Shown piece by piece: positions 27,227 to 42,889 of a stretch of DNA of 60,445 bases. Source of the stretch: a virus. Both the position numbers and the translations under genes were made by a program. Position 1 is the stretch's first letter. Each line of letters opens with the position of its first letter. The notes beneath the pieces were generated by a model. That model ran no database searches and was not told the origin of the DNA. It saw only the letters and a list, made by a program, of their open reading frames with translations. The stretch lies in the IMG/VR virus record IMGVR_UViG_3300027306_000005, positions 1 through 60,445 of that record, one strand, 5' to 3'.

Positions 27227-28903
27227 ATGGCCGACTTGACACCAACTCCCGACGAGAACGCTGCTGTGTGGCAATGGGACGGCGAGACACCGTTGCTCGG
27301 TGGGCCATCGACCGCCCCATTGAACCGACAAGCCCAGGCACTGCTGAATCGGCAGGCGTGGCTCAAGGCTGAGGTTGCGCGTGTCGAAGGCGTGGCAGAT
27401 GACGCGGCAACAGACGCCGCCACCGCCCTTTCCACGGCGGCATCGGCCTTGTCCTACGTCACCGACAACGTGGCCCAACTGCCGGAGACCTCCTACTTCG
27501 AAAACAACTACGCGGGTATTCTCGCCAAAATGGTCGACGGGCGCATCGTTGGCTGGGGGCGGGCAACGGCATCGAACCTCGGCACGGGGCACACCCACGA
27601 TGGTGACATTCGGCCTTCGTTTTCCAACTTTGCACCGAAGATCCCGGCAGGGGTGACCATCGCAGGCTTCAGCATGGCCGGTGCTGACAGCTTCGTTTGG
27701 CTGTCGAACGGCTGGGTTTACCACGCAGGGGTCAACGCTCGTGGCATTGGTGGACATGGGGACACCGCTCGTCGTTACATCTTCACCCGCATCAATTACT
27801 TCTTCTCTGGCGGGTTGTCCGTGGTTGATGTCAAGCCACGTTCCAATCGCTCCGACGACCAGTACAGCAACGCGCTGTTCTTGTGCAGCAACGGGGATGT
27901 TTACTTTTCGGGTTACTCCAATACAGCCGACGCTGGTGACGGCATCAACACCGAAAGGAGCATCTCCACGCCGGTCAAGTGCTTGGCCATCTCGGGTGCT
28001 GTTGGCATCTCAGCCGGCTCCGACAACTACAGCGGCAACTTTGCATGGCGAGCAGACGGCACCTGCTACGCATGGGGTCCGAACTCTCAAGGGATGCTGG
28101 GCGTGGGCGGCTCTGCGGCGACCCATACCCCCGTGGTCATCGCAGGGCTGCTTGCTGCCAAAGTGGTTAACCGTGTTGGCATGAACACATCCAACACACG
28201 TTACGGCTTCACGTTGTTCTTGCTCAAAGATGGCACCGTGAAGGCTGCGGGCTACAACCTGAATAACAACTTGGGTGACGGCACGACCACTGACCGCAAC
28301 ACCCCAACGACAGTCATCGGCTTGAGCGACATCGCAGACGTGGGCATCGGAGGTGGCGACTTCGGCTGGGGTTGGGCTGTTACCACCGGGAAACGTCTCA
28401 AGGTTTGGGGCTGCAACGTACACGGTGTCCTTGGCGTCGGTGACACCACAGCCCGTGGCACGCCCTTGGAGCCAATCGGCTGGACTGATGAGACCGACAC
28501 TGACGTTCTCAGCGGCTCCCCTCCGTTCCAGGGCAAGGTCGTCAAGGTCATCACAGGAAAGACGGTCGCCTCTGGCTACAGTGGACAGCAGATGGTCGTG
28601 CTCGATGAAGACGGCAACATCTGGTCTGCTGGTATGAACCTCACCCAATGTGTCGGCTGGAACTCTACCGGCACTAACACGAGGTTCAAACGTGCTGGCC
28701 TGATGGGTGTTGCGCCCGGGGACAAGATCGTTGACATCCATATTCAGGGCAGCCCCCTCTACGGTGGTCAACGCCTCTTCGCTCTGACCCAACAAGGTCG
28801 CTTGGTGGCTTCTGGCCCCAACAGTTACGCCATCCTGACGTGTGTGCCGAACTCCGGTTATCACGGCAACGTCTTTGTTCAACCTGTGCGCCTCGGAGTT
28901 TGA
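27227..28903 (+). CDS. tail protein with RCC1-like beta-propeller repeats
   Basis: 558 aa. A short N-terminal helical part (1-90) precedes at least five RCC1/ATS1-type repeats, each with a G-x-V/L-x-x-W/A-G-x-N core: SNGDVYFSGYSN, ADGTCYAWGPNSQGMLGVGG, KDGTVKAAGYNLNNNLGDGT, GKRLKVWGCNVHGVLGVGDT and EDGNIWSAGMNLTQCVGWNS. This predicts a propeller. In the tail-tip cluster it may be a side fibre or receptor-binding protein. Seen: the repeats. Inferred: receptor binding. Confidence 0.78.
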   Translation: MADLTPTPDENAAVWQWDGETPLLGGPSTAPLNRQAQALLNRQAWLKAEVARVEGVADDAATDAATALSTAASALSYVTDNVAQLPETSYFENNYAGILAKMVDGRIVGWGRATASNLGTGHTHDGDIRPSFSNFAPKIPAGVTIAGFSMAGADSFVWLSNGWVYHAGVNARGIGGHGDTARRYIFTRINYFFSGGLSVVDVKPRSNRSDDQYSNALFLCSNGDVYFSGYSNTADAGDGINTERSISTPVKCLAISGAVGISAGSDNYSGNFAWRADGTCYAWGPNSQGMLGVGGSAATHTPVVIAGLLAAKVVNRVGMNTSNTRYGFTLFLLKDGTVKAAGYNLNNNLGDGTTTDRNTPTTVIGLSDIADVGIGGGDFGWGWAVTTGKRLKVWGCNVHGVLGVGDTTARGTPLEPIGWTDETDTDVLSGSPPFQGKVVKVITGKTVASGYSGQQMVVLDEDGNIWSAGMNLTQCVGWNSTGTNTRFKRAGLMGVAPGDKIVDIHIQGSPLYGGQRLFALTQQGRLVASGPNSYAILTCVPNSGYHGNVFVQPVRLGV

Positions 28904-33346: not shown

Positions 33347-33552
33347 CCGACATCACCGTGACCATCGCAGACGTTCGTGCCTGCAACCTGTGCGTGCGTG
33401 GTGCTCGTCAGTGGTTCAACCTCAACAAGTTGGACTTCCAGCACTTCCTCATGCACGGCTATCCGATTGAAACCATCGAGGCCACGAACGATGCCCTGGG
33501 CAAGCAGGTGGCCGAGTACGCACGTCGTCGTGCAGCAGGGGAAGAAGAATGA
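33343..33552 (+). CDS. small tail-operon protein with two N-terminal Cys
   Basis: 69 aa. TVTIADVRACNLCVRGARQW with a CxxC, then a helical end. Overlaps at both ends (ATGA/GTGA style) tie it to the tail operon. Function unknown; it may bind metal. Confidence 0.6.
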   Translation: MTDITVTIADVRACNLCVRGARQWFNLNKLDFQHFLMHGYPIETIEATNDALGKQVAEYARRRAAGEEE

Positions 33553-35132
33553 GTCGTTGGCACCGTCATGAATGGGACATGCTGCCCGAGCGGGCGTTCC
33601 AGCCTCGTGGGCCGCACGGCCAGATGACGCTTGAAGGTGGCGGTGGCGGTGGGAGCCAAGTGGTTGGCTACCGCTACTACTTCGGCATTCACATGGGTGT
33701 TTGCCGTGGCCCTGTCGATGAACTCGTGGCCATCAAGGTTGGCGACAAGCTGGCGTGGAGTGGCTCGGTCACATCGTCAGGTTACTTCTCAATCGACAAT
33801 CCGAACCTGTTCGGCGGGGACAAAGGCGAGGGTGGTATCCAAGGAACCGTGCGGGCGATGTTCGGAGAGGACACGCAGACGGCCCCAGGTGAGATCGAGG
33901 CGATGACAGGGACCGCGCAACCTGCGTTCCGTCGAAAGTTCACGCTGTTCTTCGATGGTCTGGTCAGCGCACTCAACCCATACCCGAAGGCATGGAAGAT
34001 GCGCGTGCGTCGCGTGCTCTCTGGTTGGCAAGATGGCACCTTACCTTCGTGGGGTGTGACGTACGGCAAGATCATCATGACGCCGAACGACTTTGCTACC
34101 CTCGGTTCCGAATGGGGTGACAAGTACATCCATGCGATGAACCCGGCCCTGATCATCTACGAGTGCTTGACCAACAAGCAGTGGGGTCGAGGCTTGAGCG
34201 CCGATGCGATTGACGACACCTCTTTTGCCGCTTCCGCGCAGACCCTGTGGTCCGAAGGCTTCGGCCTGTGCATCAAGTGGTCACGCAAGGACACGATCCG
34301 CAACTTCATCAGTTCGGTTCTTGATCATGTCGCTGCAACGCTCTACACCGACAGAAGCACCGGCAAGATCACGCTGAAGTTGATCCGTGACGACTACACG
34401 GTGAGCACGCTTCCACTCTTTACGCCGGAAACTGGCCTGCTTGACGTTTCTTCGAACGATGTCGTCAGCCCCAACGAACAGGTCAACGTCATTCAAGTGA
34501 AATACAGGCACGCTGTGACGAATGAGGCTCGGATCGTTCGAAGCGACAGCCTCGGCGGTGTCATCGGCAAGTACGGTGTTGTGAACGCGAGCACGAGGGA
34601 CTACCCAGGTATCCCAACGGCATCGCTCGCTTTGCGCGTGGCCGAGCGTGATCTACGCATTTCCGCTACCAGTCTTCGTCGCTACAGCTTCCGGCTCGAC
34701 CGCCGAGGCTATGCGGTCTACCCCGGTCAAGCCATTCGAATCGCCCACCCTTCGATGAACATCCCTGAGACGGTGGTTCGCGTGGGCAAGATCGAAGACA
34801 ACTTCGGCGACGGCAACATCAAAGTCACCGCAGTGCAGGATGTCTTTGGCCTGCCCTCCGAGAGTTTTGGTGGCAGCGTGGGCAGCACTTGGACGCCACC
34901 TGACACCGCACCCTGTGTGCCGTTCAACCGCGCGTTCGAAGTGCCTTACTTCCTTGTCGCTCGATACACGACGGCTTCCGAGTTTGCTTTCGTGGACGCC
35001 ACGTCAGCCGGCATCGGTGTCGTGGCTGACAAGGGTAAACCGCTCAACGGTGCGTATGACATCGCGGTTCGCACGAGTGCGCCGACCAGCGATGACAATG
35101 CTGTCGACGCTTCCTACAACTGCCCGATCTGA
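33549..35132 (+). CDS. central tail-tip (J-like) protein, N-terminal part
   Basis: 527 aa. After a Gly-rich start (LEGGGGGGSQVVGYRYYFGI) come GVCRGPVDELVAIKVGDKLA and AMNPALIIYECLTNKQWGRG, both characteristic of the phage tail_3/J family, then the hub domains (DVVSPNEQVNVIQVKYRH, FRLDRRGYAVYPGQAIRIA). Host-recognition hub of the tail. J proteins are often 800-1100 aa; here the expected C-terminal part is a separate gene (35135), in a different frame. Confidence 0.82.
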   Translation: MSRWHRHEWDMLPERAFQPRGPHGQMTLEGGGGGGSQVVGYRYYFGIHMGVCRGPVDELVAIKVGDKLAWSGSVTSSGYFSIDNPNLFGGDKGEGGIQGTVRAMFGEDTQTAPGEIEAMTGTAQPAFRRKFTLFFDGLVSALNPYPKAWKMRVRRVLSGWQDGTLPSWGVTYGKIIMTPNDFATLGSEWGDKYIHAMNPALIIYECLTNKQWGRGLSADAIDDTSFAASAQTLWSEGFGLCIKWSRKDTIRNFISSVLDHVAATLYTDRSTGKITLKLIRDDYTVSTLPLFTPETGLLDVSSNDVVSPNEQVNVIQVKYRHAVTNEARIVRSDSLGGVIGKYGVVNASTRDYPGIPTASLALRVAERDLRISATSLRRYSFRLDRRGYAVYPGQAIRIAHPSMNIPETVVRVGKIEDNFGDGNIKVTAVQDVFGLPSESFGGSVGSTWTPPDTAPCVPFNRAFEVPYFLVARYTTASEFAFVDATSAGIGVVADKGKPLNGAYDIAVRTSAPTSDDNAVDASYNCPI

Positions 35133-35134
35133 CC

Positions 35135-35968
35135 ATGGCCAATAGCGACTATTCCGTGACAGCCACCTCGGCGCCTTTCTGCCCGAACGCGCAGATCGTC
35201 AATGCCGTAGGCCCTTTGACCACCGTCTTCGACATCGAGAACTTGCGCTCAACGGGCGTCGACGAAATCCTGGCCGGCGAGGCTGCGATGATCAACGACG
35301 AGATCGTCAAGGTGGTCAGCATCTCGTCGACTGAGTTGGTCGTCGCCCGTGGCTGTGCAGATACGATCCCACAGGCTCACGCCGCTGGCTCGCGCATCTG
35401 GTTCTTCAACGACAGCATCGGCTACGACGGACGTGAGTACGCCGGGTCTGAGACGGTAGGTGTGAAGATCCTGCCGAAGACGGCCAGTTCTCAGGTGCCC
35501 ATCGAGTACAGCCCACCTTCGGCCCTCACGTTCAACTTCCGCTTTGCTCGACCGTACGCCCCGGGGTTGGTCGAGGTCAACGGTGACCCGTTCACCGAGG
35601 TCAAGACCATCAACCCGACCAACGATACGCTGAGCCTGACCTGGGCGCACCGTGATCGCGTCACACAGTTCGACCAGTTGATCGACCACTTGGCCACCAG
35701 CATCGGCCCTGAGGCGGGCACCACCTACACCGTCAAGGCCCACAGGTCGAGCGACAACAGCGTGGTCAGGACGACGACGGGCATCACGGGAGCCAGTTGG
35801 ACTTACCCCTTGGCCACGGCGAGAAGTGATTTCGGGATCACGGTCGGCGCCGTGGGTGCACCTGTGGTGTTGACCGATGGCTACCTCACCCTGGAGGCGG
35901 TGCGTGACGGCTACACCTCATGGCAGAAATACAGGATCGACTTCAAGGTGAGCAACGCAGCCGTGTAA
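35135..35968 (+). CDS. tail-tip protein, probable separate C-terminal part of J
   Basis: 277 aa, two bases after the J-like stop, in another frame. Its content (FDIENLRSTGVDEILAGEAA, LVVARGCADTIPQAHAAGS, EYSPPSALTFNFRFARPYAP and a fibronectin-like end) is what often follows the hub domains inside J-like proteins. It may have split from J or may always be separate in this group. It is followed by a terminator. Confidence 0.68.
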   Translation: MANSDYSVTATSAPFCPNAQIVNAVGPLTTVFDIENLRSTGVDEILAGEAAMINDEIVKVVSISSTELVVARGCADTIPQAHAAGSRIWFFNDSIGYDGREYAGSETVGVKILPKTASSQVPIEYSPPSALTFNFRFARPYAPGLVEVNGDPFTEVKTINPTNDTLSLTWAHRDRVTQFDQLIDHLATSIGPEAGTTYTVKAHRSSDNSVVRTTTGITGASWTYPLATARSDFGITVGAVGAPVVLTDGYLTLEAVRDGYTSWQKYRIDFKVSNAAV

Positions 35969-36119: not shown

Positions 36120-36539
36120 ATGCCGCACAGCCAGCTTAATCCGGTGGAAGCGACAGTGGCCTTGCTGCTCTTGGTGTTCTCGCCGGAAGCAGCAAAGATC
36201 GTAGGCCCCTACGCAGTGATCATCCTCTCAGCGGCGCTCGGCGCAAGCTGGTCTCTCGGGCGCAAGCCGCCCCTCGAACGTAACGCAGGAGCGTTCGCGT
36301 TCTTCCTCAAGATCATCGGCACGGCATGCCTCGTGACCGTTGGCTTGGCTGAGTTGGCCAAGCACTACTTCAAGCTCGACATCGACATCACATGGCTGCT
36401 CGCTCCTATCGGGCTGCTGATCGGTGGGGTGGGCGACGACTGGCCGAAGCTGGTCAATTGGGCATGGGAGAAAGTCAAAGGTCGCATCGGCGCAAAGATC
36501 GAAGGCCAAAGCACCGGAGGCTCTGATGGCAACGCCTGA
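36120..36539 (+). CDS. holin-like membrane protein with three TM segments
   Basis: 139 aa from ATG 36120. Hydrophobic segments at about 9-25, 29-46, 61-78 and 91-104 suggest three or four membrane spans. A charged C-terminal tail follows (KVKGRIGAKIEGQ). First gene of the lysis cassette, with endolysin and spanins downstream, so a holin that forms holes in the inner membrane is likely. Confidence 0.65.
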   Translation: MPHSQLNPVEATVALLLLVFSPEAAKIVGPYAVIILSAALGASWSLGRKPPLERNAGAFAFFLKIIGTACLVTVGLAELAKHYFKLDIDITWLLAPIGLLIGGVGDDWPKLVNWAWEKVKGRIGAKIEGQSTGGSDGNA

Positions 36540-36831
36540 AGTCCAACTCATCGCTTCGATCAACCTCACCATCTGCGCAGGCTGCTTTTGGGCATGCCTG
36601 TGCAGACTCAACTCGATGTCTGCAAAGGTCTGCAAACGGGTGCGACTTCAGTTTGTGCTCTTGCTCGTCGGCTCCCTGGCCAGTGGGTTGCAGCCGATGT
36701 TCTTCCAGCAGTGGCCCGGTGTGGGCCAAACGCTTTTCTCCGCTGCCGTCCTCATCGGGCTGGTGTTGTCGATGAGCAGATGGAAGAGTGGGCCACCTGA
36801 AGACCTCCTGCCACGGGACGACGAATCATGA
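36526..36831 (+). CDS. second holin/antiholin-like membrane protein
   Basis: 101 aa, ATG inside the end of the previous gene. Segments LIASINLTICAGCFWACL and FVLLLVGSLASGLQ and VGQTLFSAAVLIGLVLSM give about three spans, and the tail is acidic. The pair of small membrane proteins before the endolysin is a usual holin/antiholin arrangement. Which one is the active holin cannot be told. Confidence 0.6.
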   Translation: MATPEVQLIASINLTICAGCFWACLCRLNSMSAKVCKRVRLQFVLLLVGSLASGLQPMFFQQWPGVGQTLFSAAVLIGLVLSMSRWKSGPPEDLLPRDDES

Positions 36832-37271: not shown

Positions 37272-37769
37272 ATGTTCGTGATCCCGACCCACTACAAGGT
37301 CATTGCAGGTGCCGCTCTCGCGGCCCTTTGCGCTTTCGGGGTTTGGTCGTTCGGCGAGGCCCGCTTTGCCGAAGGACAGGAGAGCGAAAGGGCACTGGCC
37401 AGGGCTGCGAAGACCACCGAATCCGAGAGCAGCCGCAAGCTCGAAGCTGATGTCTCGGGCAACAAGGAGAACCGTTATGACGAGTACATCAAGGCCCGTG
37501 ACACGGCCATCGCTTCTGCCGATGCTGCTCGCACTGAGCTTGGCCGGCTGCGCAACACCCTTGCCCGTTACCAACGTGGAGCCACCCAAGGCACCACCAC
37601 CGAATGCCGAGTTGATGAGCAAGCCGCGCTCGCTCGGAGCCTCGAAAGCTGCGGAGAACGACATCAAGAAGTGGCGCGAGACGGTGAACTCGACGCCGAG
37701 CAAGTGATCGGCTTGCAGAACTACATCCAATCCATCGCGCCTTTGTGCATTCGGAAAACTGAAGATTGA
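37272..37769 (+). CDS. i-spanin Rz
   Basis: 165 aa. N-terminal membrane anchor (VIAGAALAALCAFGVWSF, 10-27) followed by a long charged helix (about 40-110) and a soluble end with two Cys. With Rz1 nested in another frame this is the inner-membrane spanin that fuses with the outer membrane partner in the last lysis step. Confidence 0.8.
   Translation: MFVIPTHYKVIAGAALAALCAFGVWSFGEARFAEGQESERALARAAKTTESESSRKLEADVSGNKENRYDEYIKARDTAIASADAARTELGRLRNTLARYQRGATQGTTTECRVDEQAALARSLESCGERHQEVARDGELDAEQVIGLQNYIQSIAPLCIRKTED
37477..37707 (+). CDS. o-spanin Rz1, nested in Rz
   Basis: 76 aa in the +1 frame inside Rz, or 61 aa from the internal ATG at 37522. The sequence MLLALSLAGC-ATPLP is a clear lipoprotein signal with lipobox LAGC, followed by a Pro-rich segment (PPKAPPPNAEL) and a helix, as in lambda Rz1. 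The mature lipoprotein would sit in the outer membrane. Confidence 0.82.
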   Translation: MTSTSRPVTRPSLLPMLLALSLAGCATPLPVTNVEPPKAPPPNAELMSKPRSLGASKAAENDIKKWRETVNSTPSK

Positions 37770-37780
37770 AAGGAACCATC

Positions 37781-38146
37781 ATGAAACTCTTCTTCACGTT
37801 CATCCTGACCATCTTGCCAGCCATGGCCATGGCTTCCGCAGTGACCTGTCTGCCCAAGCAGCTCGCCGGCAGCGGCACAAGCGCCATTGCGCGTTCGAAC
37901 GCGAAGGGGGACTTCATCGCCTACTACTGTCCCAGGGAAGCCATGCCGACCATGTTCGTCTGCCTGAAGTCGACATGCTCCCTGGTCGCCAGCAAACGGG
38001 CCTTTGCGCAGATCCTCACCAACCCGAGCGTGGTGGGGGTCAACGCGGCCATCAAACCGTACACGCGTGACCCCCTGCGTGATCCTGAACTCAAACAGGT
38101 GTGGTTGCCGCACATCGACGAGATTGCCGCACTCGGAAAGCAGTGA
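37781..38146 (+). CDS. exported protein of unknown function
   Basis: 121 aa with a clean Sec signal peptide (KLFFTFILTILPAMAMASA) and four cysteines in the mature part (VTCLP, YYCPR, FVCLKSTC), probably forming disulphides in the periplasm. It follows the spanins and has an AAAGGAA site. No known lysis protein is recognised; superinfection exclusion or receptor blocking are guesses. Confidence 0.7.
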   Translation: MKLFFTFILTILPAMAMASAVTCLPKQLAGSGTSAIARSNAKGDFIAYYCPREAMPTMFVCLKSTCSLVASKRAFAQILTNPSVVGVNAAIKPYTRDPLRDPELKQVWLPHIDEIAALGKQ

Positions 38147-38147
38147 C

Positions 38148-38462
38148 ATGACGACTGCGGAACGTGTCCTCCAAATCCTCAAAGAGAAGGATGGGTTCGT
38201 CCGCATCTCAGATCTGCGTTCGCTCGACGTGCACCCACAGACACTGTACCGGGTGATCGGAAAACTCTTGAACGAGGGCTTGATCGAGCGAGGGATTCGG
38301 ATCACGGATCGTGGGCAGGCTTGCAGGGCCACTCGGCAGCGCAAGACTTGTCCTGAACTGTCCATGTTGATTCACCCACCTCAGGAAACCTTCAAAGCTA
38401 TCAGCGATGAGGCCATTGAAGACTTGAGAAACGAAGCCGTTGAGGCCCGACAATTTCGCTGA
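38148..38462 (+). CDS. winged-helix protein upstream of tail fibre
   Basis: 104 aa. TTAERVLQILKEKDGFVRIS, LRSLDVHPQTLYRVIGKLL and EGLIERGIRITDRGQA follow the helix-turn-helix-wing pattern. The C-terminal 32 residues (from MLIHPPQETF to EARQFR) are repeated, 26 of 32 identical, just upstream of the second fibre at 40762-40860, so this gene belongs to the duplicated fibre cassette. It may regulate the fibre genes. Confidence 0.65.
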   Translation: MTTAERVLQILKEKDGFVRISDLRSLDVHPQTLYRVIGKLLNEGLIERGIRITDRGQACRATRQRKTCPELSMLIHPPQETFKAISDEAIEDLRNEAVEARQFR

Positions 38463-38502
38463 GAGTTAGCTCACTGAAACAACCTTAGAAAGGAAACACA
38501 TC

Positions 38503-40617
38503 ATGCCTTCTCCCGGAAAACGTGAAATCACTTCCAACGGTCTCGTCATGCCTGCTGGTCTCGGCGACGAGTTCGACGATGAGACGAACTGGCGCGCTCT
38601 CGATCAGATGATCTCGGGCACGCACCCACTGGTCAAGCTGCCGCGTTTGAACGCGCAGAATCAAGTCGTGGACGCTCAAGGGCGACCTGTGAGCGGCGCT
38701 GTTGTTTGGGCGACCAACCCCACCTTTGCTGGCGGGGCAGACCCTTCGGGTGTGACCCCTTCGGCCGCTGCTTGGAATGCAGCGTGTCAGGCCGCTGCGG
38801 CTCTCGGGGTGCCGGCTTTCGTTTGTGCCCCAAAGGGCAACTACTTGCTCGAATCGACTGTGTTCGTCCCTGCGGGGGTGTTCATTGTCGGCGAAGGGGC
38901 CGGCAACGGGGCGCACCCCTTGACCTTCACTCCGACGGCCAGTTCATCGTTCACCGATGGGTGGATGTTCCTCATCAACTCGACGAATGGGACGACGGCT
39001 GTATCAAACATCTATGCTGCTCAATACCTCGGCGGCATCATTGGTGCTCGTTTCAACAACTACACGACGAACCTGCCGAACATTCGGGGCGCAATGTGCT
39101 TTGGTTCCGCCTTCTTCCAAGACATCCGTTCCTACCGGATGACCTGTGCTCTGAAACGACCTCGGAACCATTACATTGACCGATTCACGGTGATCCGATG
39201 TCACTCTGACCAAGAGTACAACGGCACCACCGAGTACCAGATTGAGATCGACGGGACTGGTGACACCGTGCTGATTGACCGCTGCACCTTCCCGGACTCA
39301 GGCGGGGTCACTTCGAGCGGCGGCACAAACCCGATCAAAGCTGTTCGCTTCAAGAACAGCGATTCGTTGCTGTCTTGCGCAAGTGCTGTCGTGCGAGGAA
39401 ACGTCAATGGAGATCACCTCTTCGTTGGCGTCAAGGCGTTGCGCATGGAGGTCTTCCACAGCGAGTTCGGCAAGGTCACTTGCGACAGGACCAACGTGGC
39501 CCTCGAAGACTTCTACGTGGCCGTCCCGACCGCACACAACTACACACCGCTCGTCTTTGTCGGCAGCGGCTTCAGCAGTGCGGCGTACTTCGCCAAGCTC
39601 AAGAACATCGAGTTCAACTATGGTTGGGGCAACTTCCAGAGCCCTTACGCTTTCGAGATCAAAACTCACCACGAGTATCACCTCCAGATCGAGAACTGCT
39701 ACCGGGTCTCTGACTTGAGCGCCGCAGCCCCCGCACTGCTGGGCCTGCGCATCGCCAACGCCTCCGACGCGGCCGTCTCATCGTGGGCTGCCGCTGCCCA
39801 CATGGCCAGTGCCTACGGCATCCTCCACGGCTACACGCTCGAAGACATCCGTCGTACCGTCACCATGGATTCCACGTACGGTGGCGCGTACTTCGCTTCG
39901 GCTTCGAGTTCTCAAGCTGATTGGGACGAGGCCGCAGGCACGTACTACTACACGACGCAGTACCTGCTCGACCCCGTGAACATGATTGGGGTTAACCAGT
40001 CGAACGGTGTGCAGTCCGCGACGATCTCGGCAACCACAGACACCGGCATCTTCTTGACGACCAGTGTTGGCAGCAGCCTCCCTTCTGCGACGGTCATTCG
40101 GGTCTACCGAGGAACCACGTCGGGCTCGTACGACAAGTACATCGACCTGCCCGCCGTGATGGTTCGCTCGATCCAAGATTCGGGCTCGAAGGTCTGCGGC
40201 TTGCCGTGGCTGTCGCGGACTGCCGGCGCTGTCGATACGCTCAAAGCCAACGCCAACAGCGGCAAGTGGGCTGTCAGCAGTGCAACGGGTGTGCGCCGTG
40301 CGGAAGATGTGTTTGTCGCTCGGACGAACAGTAACGGGCCGTTCGGCGCTTACGGTGGCCGAGCCATCATCGTCTACACCGCAGCGATTGGCACAACTTC
40401 GTACTACGTGAGCGCACCAACAAACGCCATGGCAGGTGACTCGGCCAGGGTTGTCCGCTCGATTGCTGCGACAGGCACAGGTGCCATTGTTGTGCAGAAT
40501 CTCGGCTCAGGTGGTAGCACCACACGCACCCTCGGCTCCCCTGGCATGTGGGTCGATCTCTACTTCGACGGCACAAGCTGGATCGAAGTGGGTGGTGGAA
40601 CCATGGTCACGACCTAA
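38503..40617 (+). CDS. tail fibre/spike 1, beta-helix type
   Basis: 704 aa. Residues 1-67 are an anchor domain, 58 of 67 identical to the start of the second fibre (40900). From about 75 the sequence has ADPSGVTPSAAAWNAACQAA and VFVPAGVFIVGEGAGNGAHP, the entry of a pectate-lyase-like right-handed beta helix, followed by helix coils to about 430, then beta-rich domains and an end with WVDLYFDGTSWIEVGGGT. Such spikes bind or cleave surface polysaccharide. No catalytic pair is assignable by eye. Confidence 0.82.
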   Translation: MPSPGKREITSNGLVMPAGLGDEFDDETNWRALDQMISGTHPLVKLPRLNAQNQVVDAQGRPVSGAVVWATNPTFAGGADPSGVTPSAAAWNAACQAAAALGVPAFVCAPKGNYLLESTVFVPAGVFIVGEGAGNGAHPLTFTPTASSSFTDGWMFLINSTNGTTAVSNIYAAQYLGGIIGARFNNYTTNLPNIRGAMCFGSAFFQDIRSYRMTCALKRPRNHYIDRFTVIRCHSDQEYNGTTEYQIEIDGTGDTVLIDRCTFPDSGGVTSSGGTNPIKAVRFKNSDSLLSCASAVVRGNVNGDHLFVGVKALRMEVFHSEFGKVTCDRTNVALEDFYVAVPTAHNYTPLVFVGSGFSSAAYFAKLKNIEFNYGWGNFQSPYAFEIKTHHEYHLQIENCYRVSDLSAAAPALLGLRIANASDAAVSSWAAAAHMASAYGILHGYTLEDIRRTVTMDSTYGGAYFASASSSQADWDEAAGTYYYTTQYLLDPVNMIGVNQSNGVQSATISATTDTGIFLTTSVGSSLPSATVIRVYRGTTSGSYDKYIDLPAVMVRSIQDSGSKVCGLPWLSRTAGAVDTLKANANSGKWAVSSATGVRRAEDVFVARTNSNGPFGAYGGRAIIVYTAAIGTTSYYVSAPTNAMAGDSARVVRSIAATGTGAIVVQNLGSGGSTTRTLGSPGMWVDLYFDGTSWIEVGGGTMVTT

Positions 40618-40628
40618 CCCACCAAAAC

Positions 40629-40655
40629 AAAAGGCCCAACACGGGGCCTTTCTTC
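40629..40655. terminator. terminator after fibre 1 (duplicated element)
   Basis: AAGGCCC-AACACG-GGGCCTT with A-run before and T-run after, so it can work on both strands. The same element with flanks occurs at 42548-42571 after fibre 2. Confidence 0.8.
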
Positions 40656-40669
40656 ATTGCAAGAAGCCG

Positions 40670-40757
40670 TCACAGGCTGTCGTCATCATCGTCGTCGTTC
40701 AGAGGATCGTGGGCAAACTCATCAGATCCATAAGCGAAGGTCAGCTTGTGCCGAGCC
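40670..40757 (-). pseudogene. 3' stub of a minus-strand gene with DPLN acidic tail
   Basis: The minus strand reads FAYGSDEFAHDPLNDDDDD-SL-stop and is open back to a stop at about 40762, but there is no start codon. The end and the following terminator are nearly identical to the end of the gene at 42587 and its terminator. The upstream residues differ from that gene, so this is the C-terminal remnant of a related but different gene, cut off where the second fibre cassette begins. Confidence 0.7.
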
Positions 40758-40761
40758 GGTC

Positions 40762-40860
40762 ATGCTGATCCACCCTCCGCAAGATGTCTTTGAAGCTGTC
40801 AGCGACGAGGCCATCGAACGGTTAAGAAGTGAAGCCGTAGAGGCTCGGCAATTTCGCTGA
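40762..40860 (+). pseudogene. 3' stub of winged-helix gene, duplicated cassette
   Basis: Encodes MLIHPPQDVFEAVSDEAI...EARQFR, matching the last 32 codons of the winged-helix gene at 38148 in 26 places. The DNA-binding part is missing. It is followed, as in copy 1, by a short spacer with AGAAAGGAA and the fibre start. Confidence 0.8.
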
Positions 40861-40899
40861 GAATCGGCACACCGAAGCAACCTTTAGAAAGGAATAATC

Positions 40900-42408
40900 A
40901 TGCCTTCTCCCGGAAAACGTGAAATCACTTCCAACGGTCTCGTCATGCCTGTCGGTCTCGGCGACGAACAAGACGACAAGCACAACTGGCCGGCGTTTGA
41001 CCAGATGCTTTCGGGCACGCACCCGCTGGTCAAGCTGCCGCGTTTGAACGCGCAGAATCAAGTCGTGGACGCTCAGGGTCAGCCGGTGGGTGGTGCGGTG
41101 CCCTGGCAGGCTAATCAGGTCGTTTCACCGTGGGCGGGCGCGGTCTTGCCAACGGGGACCGATGCGATCAACGAATGGACTTCGGCGGGTTCTTCTGGCG
41201 CGGTCATCTCTAGCGACACAAACGTGAAGTTTGGTGGGCGTCCGACAACGCGCGTGACGTTCGGTGGCGCACCGAGTGGCACGGCCTTCGAAGTGGGTGT
41301 TTCGGGTGCTTCAGTCGCCATCCGGGGTGTGGCGCGTGAGCTGCTGAGCGGATACGCAGTTGTCGCGGTCAATGGCACAGCTCCCATCACCGCCGCGAAG
41401 CTGTACATCGGTGACGCAGGTTACGCGAACTACTACGAAGTGAACATCACGAACAATGCGCTCAACGCTGTGAAGGACATCGGCAATGGGTGGCGGCTGC
41501 TCATGGCTGATTGCTCGCTCGCGGGCGTTGTGAGCGTTCAAGGTGCCCCGAACCTTGACGGTCTCAAGCGCATGAAAGTCACTTGCTTCAGTGACGCCAA
41601 CCCGCCTTCAGGAAGCGTGTGGGTCGGGTTCGCGGGCGTGGTCAAGAAGCCGAAGCCAACTGTCGTTCTGACCTGTGACGATGGTTACTCCGAGTGGGCC
41701 AGCTACCTTTTCCCGGCGATGAAGGAGCGCAACGTTCCCGGCTCTTTCTCGATCGACGCGGGCTATGTGAGTGCGCCGGGCTTCATGACCGAGCAGCAGT
41801 TCAGGACGTCTCTGGCGACTTATGGCGACCTGATCGAATATGTGAATCACGGGGCCAACAACGTCGCGTATGCGCCGGCCAGCTTCGCGCAGTACACGGC
41901 CAACATCTTGCAGTGCGACGCGCTGCTGAAGGAGTGGGGAGTCACCGATGAATCGCGCAAGCTGCACACGTACGTGCAAGGTCAATTTGATCAGTCTCTG
42001 ATTGACTGGCTGGTGTCAAACGGCTTCAAGGCGGCGCGAGAAGTGGGGGCCTCGAACCGTTCGCAGTTCCATTTGGCGGCGCACCTTGGCATTCCCGATG
42101 TGAACAGGAACTCGCGCTACGCGATCCCAGCAGGCTGCAACCTGAGCAACGCCCAGCCGGTGGCCACGGTGATCGACTACATCGAAGAGGCGAAGCTACG
42201 CGGCTCAGCCTTCTTCCTGATGGGCCATGAGTTCAAGGTCGCACCAGGCCCTCAGGCTTACGTCGCCGGTTATCACGCGACGCACGGCATGAGCAACCTG
42301 CTGGACTACTTGGCGGCTGAGCGTGATGCAGGGCGGATCGACCTTGTGAAGTGGTCGACCTATGTGGAATCAATGTCCCTTGGTCGTCCTGTTGTTGGCG
42401 TGAGCTGA
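40900..42408 (+). CDS. tail fibre 2 with polysaccharide deacetylase-like domain
   Basis: 502 aa. Residues 1-67 repeat the anchor of fibre 1. The middle (about 85-245) is beta-rich. From about 250 a NodB/polysaccharide deacetylase-like domain starts: PTVVLTCDDGYSEW (motif 1, DDG), EYVNHGANN (motif 2; one His is present, the second expected His is Asn), and a late segment AFFLMGHEFKV. It would modify or bind capsule or LPS sugars. The altered zinc site may mean a changed enzyme or a pure binding domain. Followed by a bidirectional terminator. Confidence 0.8.
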   Translation: MPSPGKREITSNGLVMPVGLGDEQDDKHNWPAFDQMLSGTHPLVKLPRLNAQNQVVDAQGQPVGGAVPWQANQVVSPWAGAVLPTGTDAINEWTSAGSSGAVISSDTNVKFGGRPTTRVTFGGAPSGTAFEVGVSGASVAIRGVARELLSGYAVVAVNGTAPITAAKLYIGDAGYANYYEVNITNNALNAVKDIGNGWRLLMADCSLAGVVSVQGAPNLDGLKRMKVTCFSDANPPSGSVWVGFAGVVKKPKPTVVLTCDDGYSEWASYLFPAMKERNVPGSFSIDAGYVSAPGFMTEQQFRTSLATYGDLIEYVNHGANNVAYAPASFAQYTANILQCDALLKEWGVTDESRKLHTYVQGQFDQSLIDWLVSNGFKAAREVGASNRSQFHLAAHLGIPDVNRNSRYAIPAGCNLSNAQPVATVIDYIEEAKLRGSAFFLMGHEFKVAPGPQAYVAGYHATHGMSNLLDYLAAERDAGRIDLVKWSTYVESMSLGRPVVGVS

Positions 42409-42547
42409 CGTCCGTTACAAGATCGACCATCGAAGTCGTTGATGATCTTGGCTCAAACCAAAATTCGGCCGAGCTGGCTGCATTGAAGCCATCGCCGCTT
42501 AACCACCCGACTCGGCGCGGATCAGCGAATTAAGCCCACCAAAACAA

Positions 42548-42571
42548 AAGGCCCCGTGTGGGGCCTTTCTT
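42548..42571. terminator. bidirectional terminator between convergent genes
   Basis: AAGGCCCC-GTGT-GGGGCCTT with A-run before and TTCTT after. It serves fibre 2 (+) and the gene at 42587 (-). Confidence 0.9.
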
Positions 42572-42586
42572 CATTGCGTCGTGCCG

Positions 42587-42889
42587 TCACAGGCTGTCGT
42601 CGTCATCGTCGTCGTCGTTCAGAGGATCGTGGGGCTTCTCGGCTACCTTGCCCTTGACAACCCTCTTTTCGGCCGCTGTGAGTGATCCTGACCTGTCCAC
42701 GGGGGCGTTGAGACGACTCTTGATGTGCTCGATCACGGCATCCCCGATGGCCAGAACGTCGCTGACCTTCCAGTTGTAGCCGTTCTTGACCCTGGAGACG
42801 GGCTTGACGCCGGCCTCGATCAGGATCTCGGGACGGAACTGCACACCGAAGTGCTTGCACAGTTGAGTGGTTGTGACGGTATCGCTCAT
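42587..42889 (-). CDS. HTH-like small protein with DPLN acidic tail
   Basis: 100 aa. TTTQLCKHFGVQFRPEILIE and VSRVKNGYNWKVSDVLAIGD resemble a phage excisionase- or MerR-like winged helix. After a Lys-rich linker the protein ends KPHDPLNDDDDDDDSL. The tail KP-x-DPLN-acidic-L recurs in the proteins at 46561 and 50955 and in the stub at 40670. Last gene of the long minus-strand block. Function not known. Confidence 0.72.
   Translation of the reverse strand: MSDTVTTTQLCKHFGVQFRPEILIEAGVKPVSRVKNGYNWKVSDVLAIGDAVIEHIKSRLNAPVDRSGSLTAAEKRVVKGKVAEKPHDPLNDDDDDDDSL

What the first reader, a model, noticed from the sequence alone, without database searches (positions are those of the whole stretch)
38365..42571. 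Unequal duplication of a tail-fibre cassette with two gene stubs at the joint
The unit [winged-helix 3' end - fibre N-terminus] is present at 38365 and 40762 (58 of 67 fibre residues identical), and the unit [terminator - DPLN gene 3' end] at 40617 and 42535. The joint (40745-40762) lies between a minus-strand gene stub and a winged-helix stub. The simplest history is recombination between two related phages placing two complete fibre cassettes in tandem and giving alternative receptor-binding proteins.
Basis: partly seen in the sequence, partly recalled or inferred. Interest (0 to 1): 0.8.

Follow-up and report, generated by a model that had tools for sequence, protein, structure and literature searches.

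The report
Tandem phage tail-spike cassettes, recombination scar
This phage carries two different sugar-attacking tail spikes side by side on the same attachment domain, and a scar between them, with two broken gene ends fused at a shared 10-letter stretch, shows that at least one was added by a crossover; paired spikes are ordinary for phages and also occur in both known relatives, but the scar gives an unusually clear record of how a pair was made.

Summary
The repeats are real and at the stated places. The joint is sharper than reported and lies 32-41 nt further left. DPLN-gene homology runs up to 40713 and winged-helix homology starts at 40704, so the two overlap in a 10-nt identical stretch, GGATCGTGGG, that both intact genes contain. 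The intact and stub winged-helix ends differ mainly at silent sites (dS about 1.4, dN 0.15). The expectation that relatives have one cassette failed. The only two relatives found both carry two tandem fibres with the same anchor, but without stubs or an internal terminator. A fibre pair is thus typical of this Casjensviridae-like group, and the window formed or re-formed its pair by a separate route. Across the three genomes the six fibre bodies are nearly all unrelated: three NodB-like deacetylases, a pectate-lyase-like helix, and two unclassified (one possibly SGNH-like). The deacetylase sits in slot 2 here and slot 1 in the relatives, while anchors group by genome. Most likely function: two interchangeable enzymatic tail spikes on one anchor type. 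Interesting but of a known kind.

The parts
37272..37769 (+). Rz-like spanin; last gene left of the variable island. Identity to relative L002 falls inside it
   Evidence: PHROG 312 E=1.8e-07; identity to L002 drops from about 91-100% to 59-83% inside the gene
37781..38146 (+). 121-aa secreted-type small protein; lies before the fibres here, after them in L002, not found in L003
   Evidence: 60% identical to L002:10021-10389; genome search
38148..38462 (+). winged-helix gene, intact copy (104 aa); found in neither relative
   Evidence: weak HTH_Crp_2/MarR matches below cut-off; search of relatives
38306..38315 (+). GGATCGTGGG in the intact winged-helix gene: one parent's side of the joint
38503..40617 (+). 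fibre A, 704 aa: shared anchor (residues 1-67) plus pectate-lyase-like beta-helix body
   Evidence: Pect-lyase_RHGA_epim E=1.9e-05, 25 bits vs cut-off 27; 21-27% identity to six phage proteins
38629..38678 (+). 50-nt perfect tract shared with 41026-41075 in the second fibre, in a part of the anchor that differs in the relatives; likely recombination handle
   Evidence: read; clustering of silent differences p=0.0005
40618..40660 (.). first copy of the two-way terminator, now internal to the fibre pair
   Evidence: hairpin -13.4 kcal/mol on + and -15.8 on -; terminator-like site on - strand
40675..40713 (-). DPLN gene stub: last codons only (...HDPLNDDDDDDSL stop)
   Evidence: 35 nt at 97% to 42599-42633; translation
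40704..40713 (.). the joint: GGATCGTGGG shared by both parental sequences
   Evidence: a run of 10 or more shared bases at random pairs of positions has frequency 4e-05
40704..40860 (+). winged-helix stub (DRGQ ... ARQFR stop)
   Evidence: E=1.8e-17 to the intact copy; dN 0.15, dS 1.39
40900..42408 (+). fibre B, 502 aa: shared anchor plus NodB-like polysaccharide deacetylase body
   Evidence: Polysacc_deac_1 E=1.6e-07, 31.8 bits above cut-off 23.1
42535..42577 (.). second (normal) copy of the two-way terminator at the right end of the island
   Evidence: -16.6 and -19.6 kcal/mol; single counterpart at the same place in L002 and L003
42587..42889 (-). intact DPLN gene (100 aa), convergent with the fibres
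   Evidence: 74% and 67% identical to relatives; 5' end 96%, 3' end 63-70% DNA identity to L002
42624..42633 (.). GGATCGTGGG in the intact DPLN gene: the other parent's side of the joint

Best explanation
The locus is a variable receptor-binding island of a siphophage related to Casjensviridae. It holds two tail-spike genes that share an anchor domain of about 50-67 residues and carry unrelated enzyme-like bodies, a pectate-lyase-like beta-helix and a NodB-like polysaccharide deacetylase. The present pair was made by an illegitimate crossover at 10 shared bases between two related phages (or two genomes in one cell), each with the order winged helix - fibre - terminator - DPLN. This left a DPLN stub, a winged-helix stub and an internal terminator between the fibres. 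Shown: repeats, stubs, shared bases at the joint, silent-site-rich divergence, two fibres in both relatives. Inferred: that the anchors dock both spikes on the same tail site, that the bodies modify or bind host surface sugars, and that two spikes broaden or secure host recognition.
For: Repeats; 10-nt overlap of the two homologies at the joint. Winged-helix stub vs intact: 6/4/14 differences at codon positions 1/2/3, dN 0.15, dS 1.39, third-position excess p=0.01. The relatives' backbone is about 92% (L002) and 71% (L003) identical and they also carry two tandem fibres with this anchor. Bodies differ within and between genomes; only fibre B and L002 fibre A are clearly homologous (z=11.5). 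Families: Polysacc_deac_1 in three fibres, pectate-lyase-like in one. Position after the lysis genes, with a tail-tip protein 44% identical to BcepNazgul.
Against: No single-cassette relative was found, so the parents are inferred. Only two relatives are known and all three are metagenome contigs; chimaeric assembly of the window at the joint cannot be excluded without reads. No virion or adsorption data. Some catalytic residues look changed in the relatives' deacetylase bodies, so activity is not assured.
Confidence: 0.6

Rival explanations
1. In-genome tandem duplication of one cassette, followed by replacement of one fibre body and decay of the extra gene ends in place.
For: A single-genome duplication would also give the unit order seen; fibre anchors of the window are closer to each other than to those of relatives.
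Against: Stub vs intact winged helix shows saturated silent sites with few amino-acid changes (dS 1.39, dN 0.15), while a stub decaying in place should accumulate both kinds freely. The stub could have been homogenised or replaced later, so this is not fully excluded.
Confidence: 0.12
2. The two-fibre state is simply ancestral; the window's stubs and second terminator come from replacement of one resident fibre by an imported cassette, not from joining two single-cassette phages.
For: Both relatives have two fibres, so the ancestor probably did too; the deacetylase fibre persists in all three but changes slot.
Against: The left unit runs spanin - 121 aa - winged helix - single fibre - terminator - DPLN stub with no second fibre, so the left parent appears to have had one. 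This rival differs mainly in what preceded the crossover.
Confidence: 0.22
3. Assembly chimaera: two strains' cassettes joined by the assembler at a repeat.
For: Metagenome contig; the units are repeats of each other.
Against: Units are only 76-86% identical and the joint uses just 10 shared bases, shorter than usual assembly overlaps. Two tandem fibres recur in independent contigs.
Confidence: 0.06

Closest known systems
K1-5 / K1E dual tailspikes (reviewed in PMC5380687)
   Different: There the spikes dock on a dedicated adapter protein; here the phage is siphophage-type, the docking partner is unknown, and a recombination scar separates the genes
Branched multi-tailspike systems of Ackermannviridae, CBA120 and G7C (PMC11721090 by title and abstract only; CBA120 and G7C as mentioned in PMC9569702)
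   Same: Several enzymatic spikes with shared attachment modules and exchangeable bodies
   Different: No tailspike attachment domain of that type was identified here; only two spikes share this anchor
Domain shuffling in phage receptor-binding proteins (PMC10684548)
   Same: Conserved N-terminus joined to unrelated catalytic or receptor domains, with recent exchange
   Different: Here the exchange scar itself, with gene stubs and a 10-nt shared breakpoint, is preserved
Tandem paralogous genes between tail fibre and spanin in Jacunavirus SLP-22 (Casjensviridae)
   Same: Row of homologous genes in the corresponding tail-to-lysis region (SLP22_0033-0036, 24-32% identical)
   Different: Homologous over most of their length rather than sharing only an anchor; no detectable similarity to the window's fibres

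Membership tests
Casjensviridae-like siphophage | Syntenic tail module with homologous tail-tip protein | tested here: met
   43-44% identity over about 90% of the 527-aa tail protein to BcepNazgul and SLP-22; order tail - lysis - ParB as in BcepNazgul
Casjensviridae-like siphophage | Formal family placement by genome-wide phylogeny | not tested
   No tree or shared-protein network was made
Modular tailspike pair sharing an N-terminal anchor | Conserved N-terminus followed by unrelated bodies | tested here: met
   Anchor 79% identical within the window, bodies without similarity (fibre A vs B z=0.0)
Modular tailspike pair sharing an N-terminal anchor | Anchor attaches to the virion | not testable with these tools
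   Needs virion proteomics or cryo-EM; anchor model low confidence (pLDDT 55.5)
NodB-like polysaccharide deacetylase (fibre B) | Profile match above curated cut-off | tested here: met
   PF01522 31.8 bits vs 23.1
NodB-like polysaccharide deacetylase (fibre B) | Metal-binding Asp and His motifs | tested here: inconclusive
   By eye TCDDG, HGANN and LMGH are present in fibre B; L002 fibre A (FDGAG) and L003 fibre A (FDDG, no His at motif 2) depart; no usable structure (pLDDT 32.7)
Pectate-lyase-like tailspike (fibre A) | Profile match above curated cut-off | tested here: not met
   PF12708 25 bits, cut-off 27, over 59 residues only; called pectate-lyase-like, not a member
SGNH esterase (L003 fibre B) | Significant family match | tested here: not met
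   No significant Pfam or NCBIfam match; only TesA at E=0.21

The most novel reading that the evidence does not exclude
The two anchors in each genome evolve together while the bodies change slot: anchors group by genome (trees by body type or by crossed pairs rejected, AU p<0.005), and in L003 the first 46 residues of both are identical although 20 of 46 third codon positions differ. This would mean that the paired spikes must match each other, for instance in one mixed complex on the tail, rather than acting as independent alternatives. Between the window and L002 the tail-tip proteins are about 99% identical while the anchors differ, so change in those tail-tip proteins is not an obvious driver.
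Probability: 0.2. Interest if true: 0.55.

Novelty: new member of a known kind. Interest (0 to 1): 0.33.

Why it matters
It is a well-preserved record of how a phage makes or renews a pair of tail spikes. The breakpoint, both gene stubs and the duplicated terminator are all still readable, and the relatives show that having two spikes is the usual state while their bodies turn over almost completely. It gives a concrete case for testing whether paired spikes are independent alternatives or obligate partners.

Tried and rejected
Fold prediction of fibre B from a three-row alignment (pLDDT 32.7) and of the anchor (pLDDT 55.5) was too poor for fold search, so none was run. Searches for the fibre bodies in viral contigs gave no relative; the anchor was not found in 50,697 phage records or in species genomes. 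A search for relatives through the winged-helix gene found none, and through DPLN only the same two. Solved-structure search of fibres A and B found nothing. An early full-length BLAST E-value between fibre B and L002 fibre A was inflated by the shared anchor; body-only comparison still supports homology (z=11.5), but L003's deacetylase body is only marginally similar. The mosaic test on the window's anchors (p=0.0005) is partly confounded, because the first 51 nt are well conserved in L002 too; only the 50-nt tract at 38629-38678 is a fair sign of exchange. Idea that the winged-helix stub is a translated peptide: no good ribosome-binding site seen by eye before the ATG at its MLIHPP; not pursued.

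Full report
Observation. The window is a whole IMG/VR virus record of 60,445 bases. The direct repeats are confirmed: 38500/40897 (203 nt, 86%), 38347/40745 (140 nt, 76%), 40618/42535 (81 nt, 86%) and 40679/42599 (35 nt, 97%). Reading from the left, the order is spanin, a 121-aa gene, winged helix, fibre A (704 aa), terminator, DPLN stub, winged-helix stub, fibre B (502 aa), terminator, intact DPLN gene on the minus strand, then ParB.

The joint. DPLN homology ends at 40713 and winged-helix homology, at a constant offset of 2398, begins at 40704. The overlap GGATCGTGGG is present at the matching place in both intact genes (38306 and 42624) and nowhere else on the + strand of the window. Random pairs of positions in the window share such a run with frequency 4e-05. 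This is the expected mark of illegitimate recombination at a short shared sequence.

Two parents. Over 33 codons the winged-helix stub and the intact gene differ 6, 4 and 14 times at codon positions 1, 2 and 3 (p=0.01 for the excess at position 3), with dN 0.15 and dS 1.39. Most of the divergence therefore arose while both copies were working genes, that is, in two lineages. Each unit holds one fibre between winged helix and terminator, so the left parent at least seems to have had a single fibre here. No such parent was found.

Relatives. Searches with the anchor and DPLN returned only two genomes that carry this locus; the ParB and tail-protein searches returned these same genomes plus short or distant contigs. 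The two are L002 (G001; about 92% in the flanking backbone) and L003 (G002; about 71%). Both have exactly two fibres with the same anchor, side by side. Neither has the winged-helix gene, and each has the two-way terminator only once, at the right end of the island. The 121-aa gene lies after the fibres in L002 and was not found in L003. Identity to L002 falls inside the spanin, is high again at the 5' end of DPLN and resumes in ParB, so the island between them is exchanged as a block while the backbone stays nearly the same.

Bodies and anchors. Fibre B and the first fibre of each relative match Polysacc_deac_1; fibre A is only pectate-lyase-like, below cut-off. L002's second fibre has no family match, and L003's second fibre has only a very weak esterase match. 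Body-only comparison shows clear homology for just one pair, window fibre B with L002 fibre A (z=11.5), and marginal similarity of L002 fibre A to L003 fibre A. So the deacetylase is in slot 2 here and slot 1 in the relatives. Anchors, in contrast, group by genome; the tree that follows body type is rejected (AU p=0.0001 for DNA, p=5e-81 for protein), and the two crossed pairings of window and L002 anchors are also rejected (AU p<0.005). In L003 the 46-residue anchors are identical with 20 third-position differences, so recent copying cannot be the reason there; selection on the protein is the better explanation. In the window a 50-nt perfect tract suggests exchange between copies. These are six short sequences and the cause is open.

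Function. The most likely role is a pair of enzymatic tail spikes displayed through one anchor type and acting on host surface sugars. That follows from position after the tail and lysis genes, modular build and families, not from a test. The internal terminator may reduce fibre B expression; no sigma-70-like promoter was found between the fibres.

Known context. [quoted passage not shown] those are SGNH-type), and domain shuffling of receptor-binding proteins in general (PMC10684548). The finding is a new member of that kind with a well-preserved scar.

Noticed in passing
27227-28903; L006:4359-5231; L009:4535-5224: A further tail protein just after the tape measure and one tail gene also has a conserved start (MAxLTPTPDENAxVxQWDG...TAPLNRQAQALLN) and wholly different bodies in the three phages; in the window the body matches RCC1-repeat families (E=2.5e-20). 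Probably a third exchangeable tail appendage with its own anchor.
   Followed up: partly
33549-35132 and 35135-35968: The tail-tip protein that is one gene in BcepNazgul and SLP-22 is split into two genes here and in L002; in L003 the second part may have a further frame change near L009:12254-12261.
   Followed up: partly
42409-42535: 127 nt between fibre B and its terminator, ending in a TAA directly before the terminator as fibre A does; may be the remnant of an older gene end.
   Followed up: no
L002:10784-11137: About 300 nt of extra sequence between DPLN and ParB in relative L002, absent from the window.
   Followed up: no
35500-35799 and 36500-36599: 100% identity to L002 in 100-nt blocks beside regions at 84-96%, suggesting recent exchange in the backbone too.
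   Followed up: no
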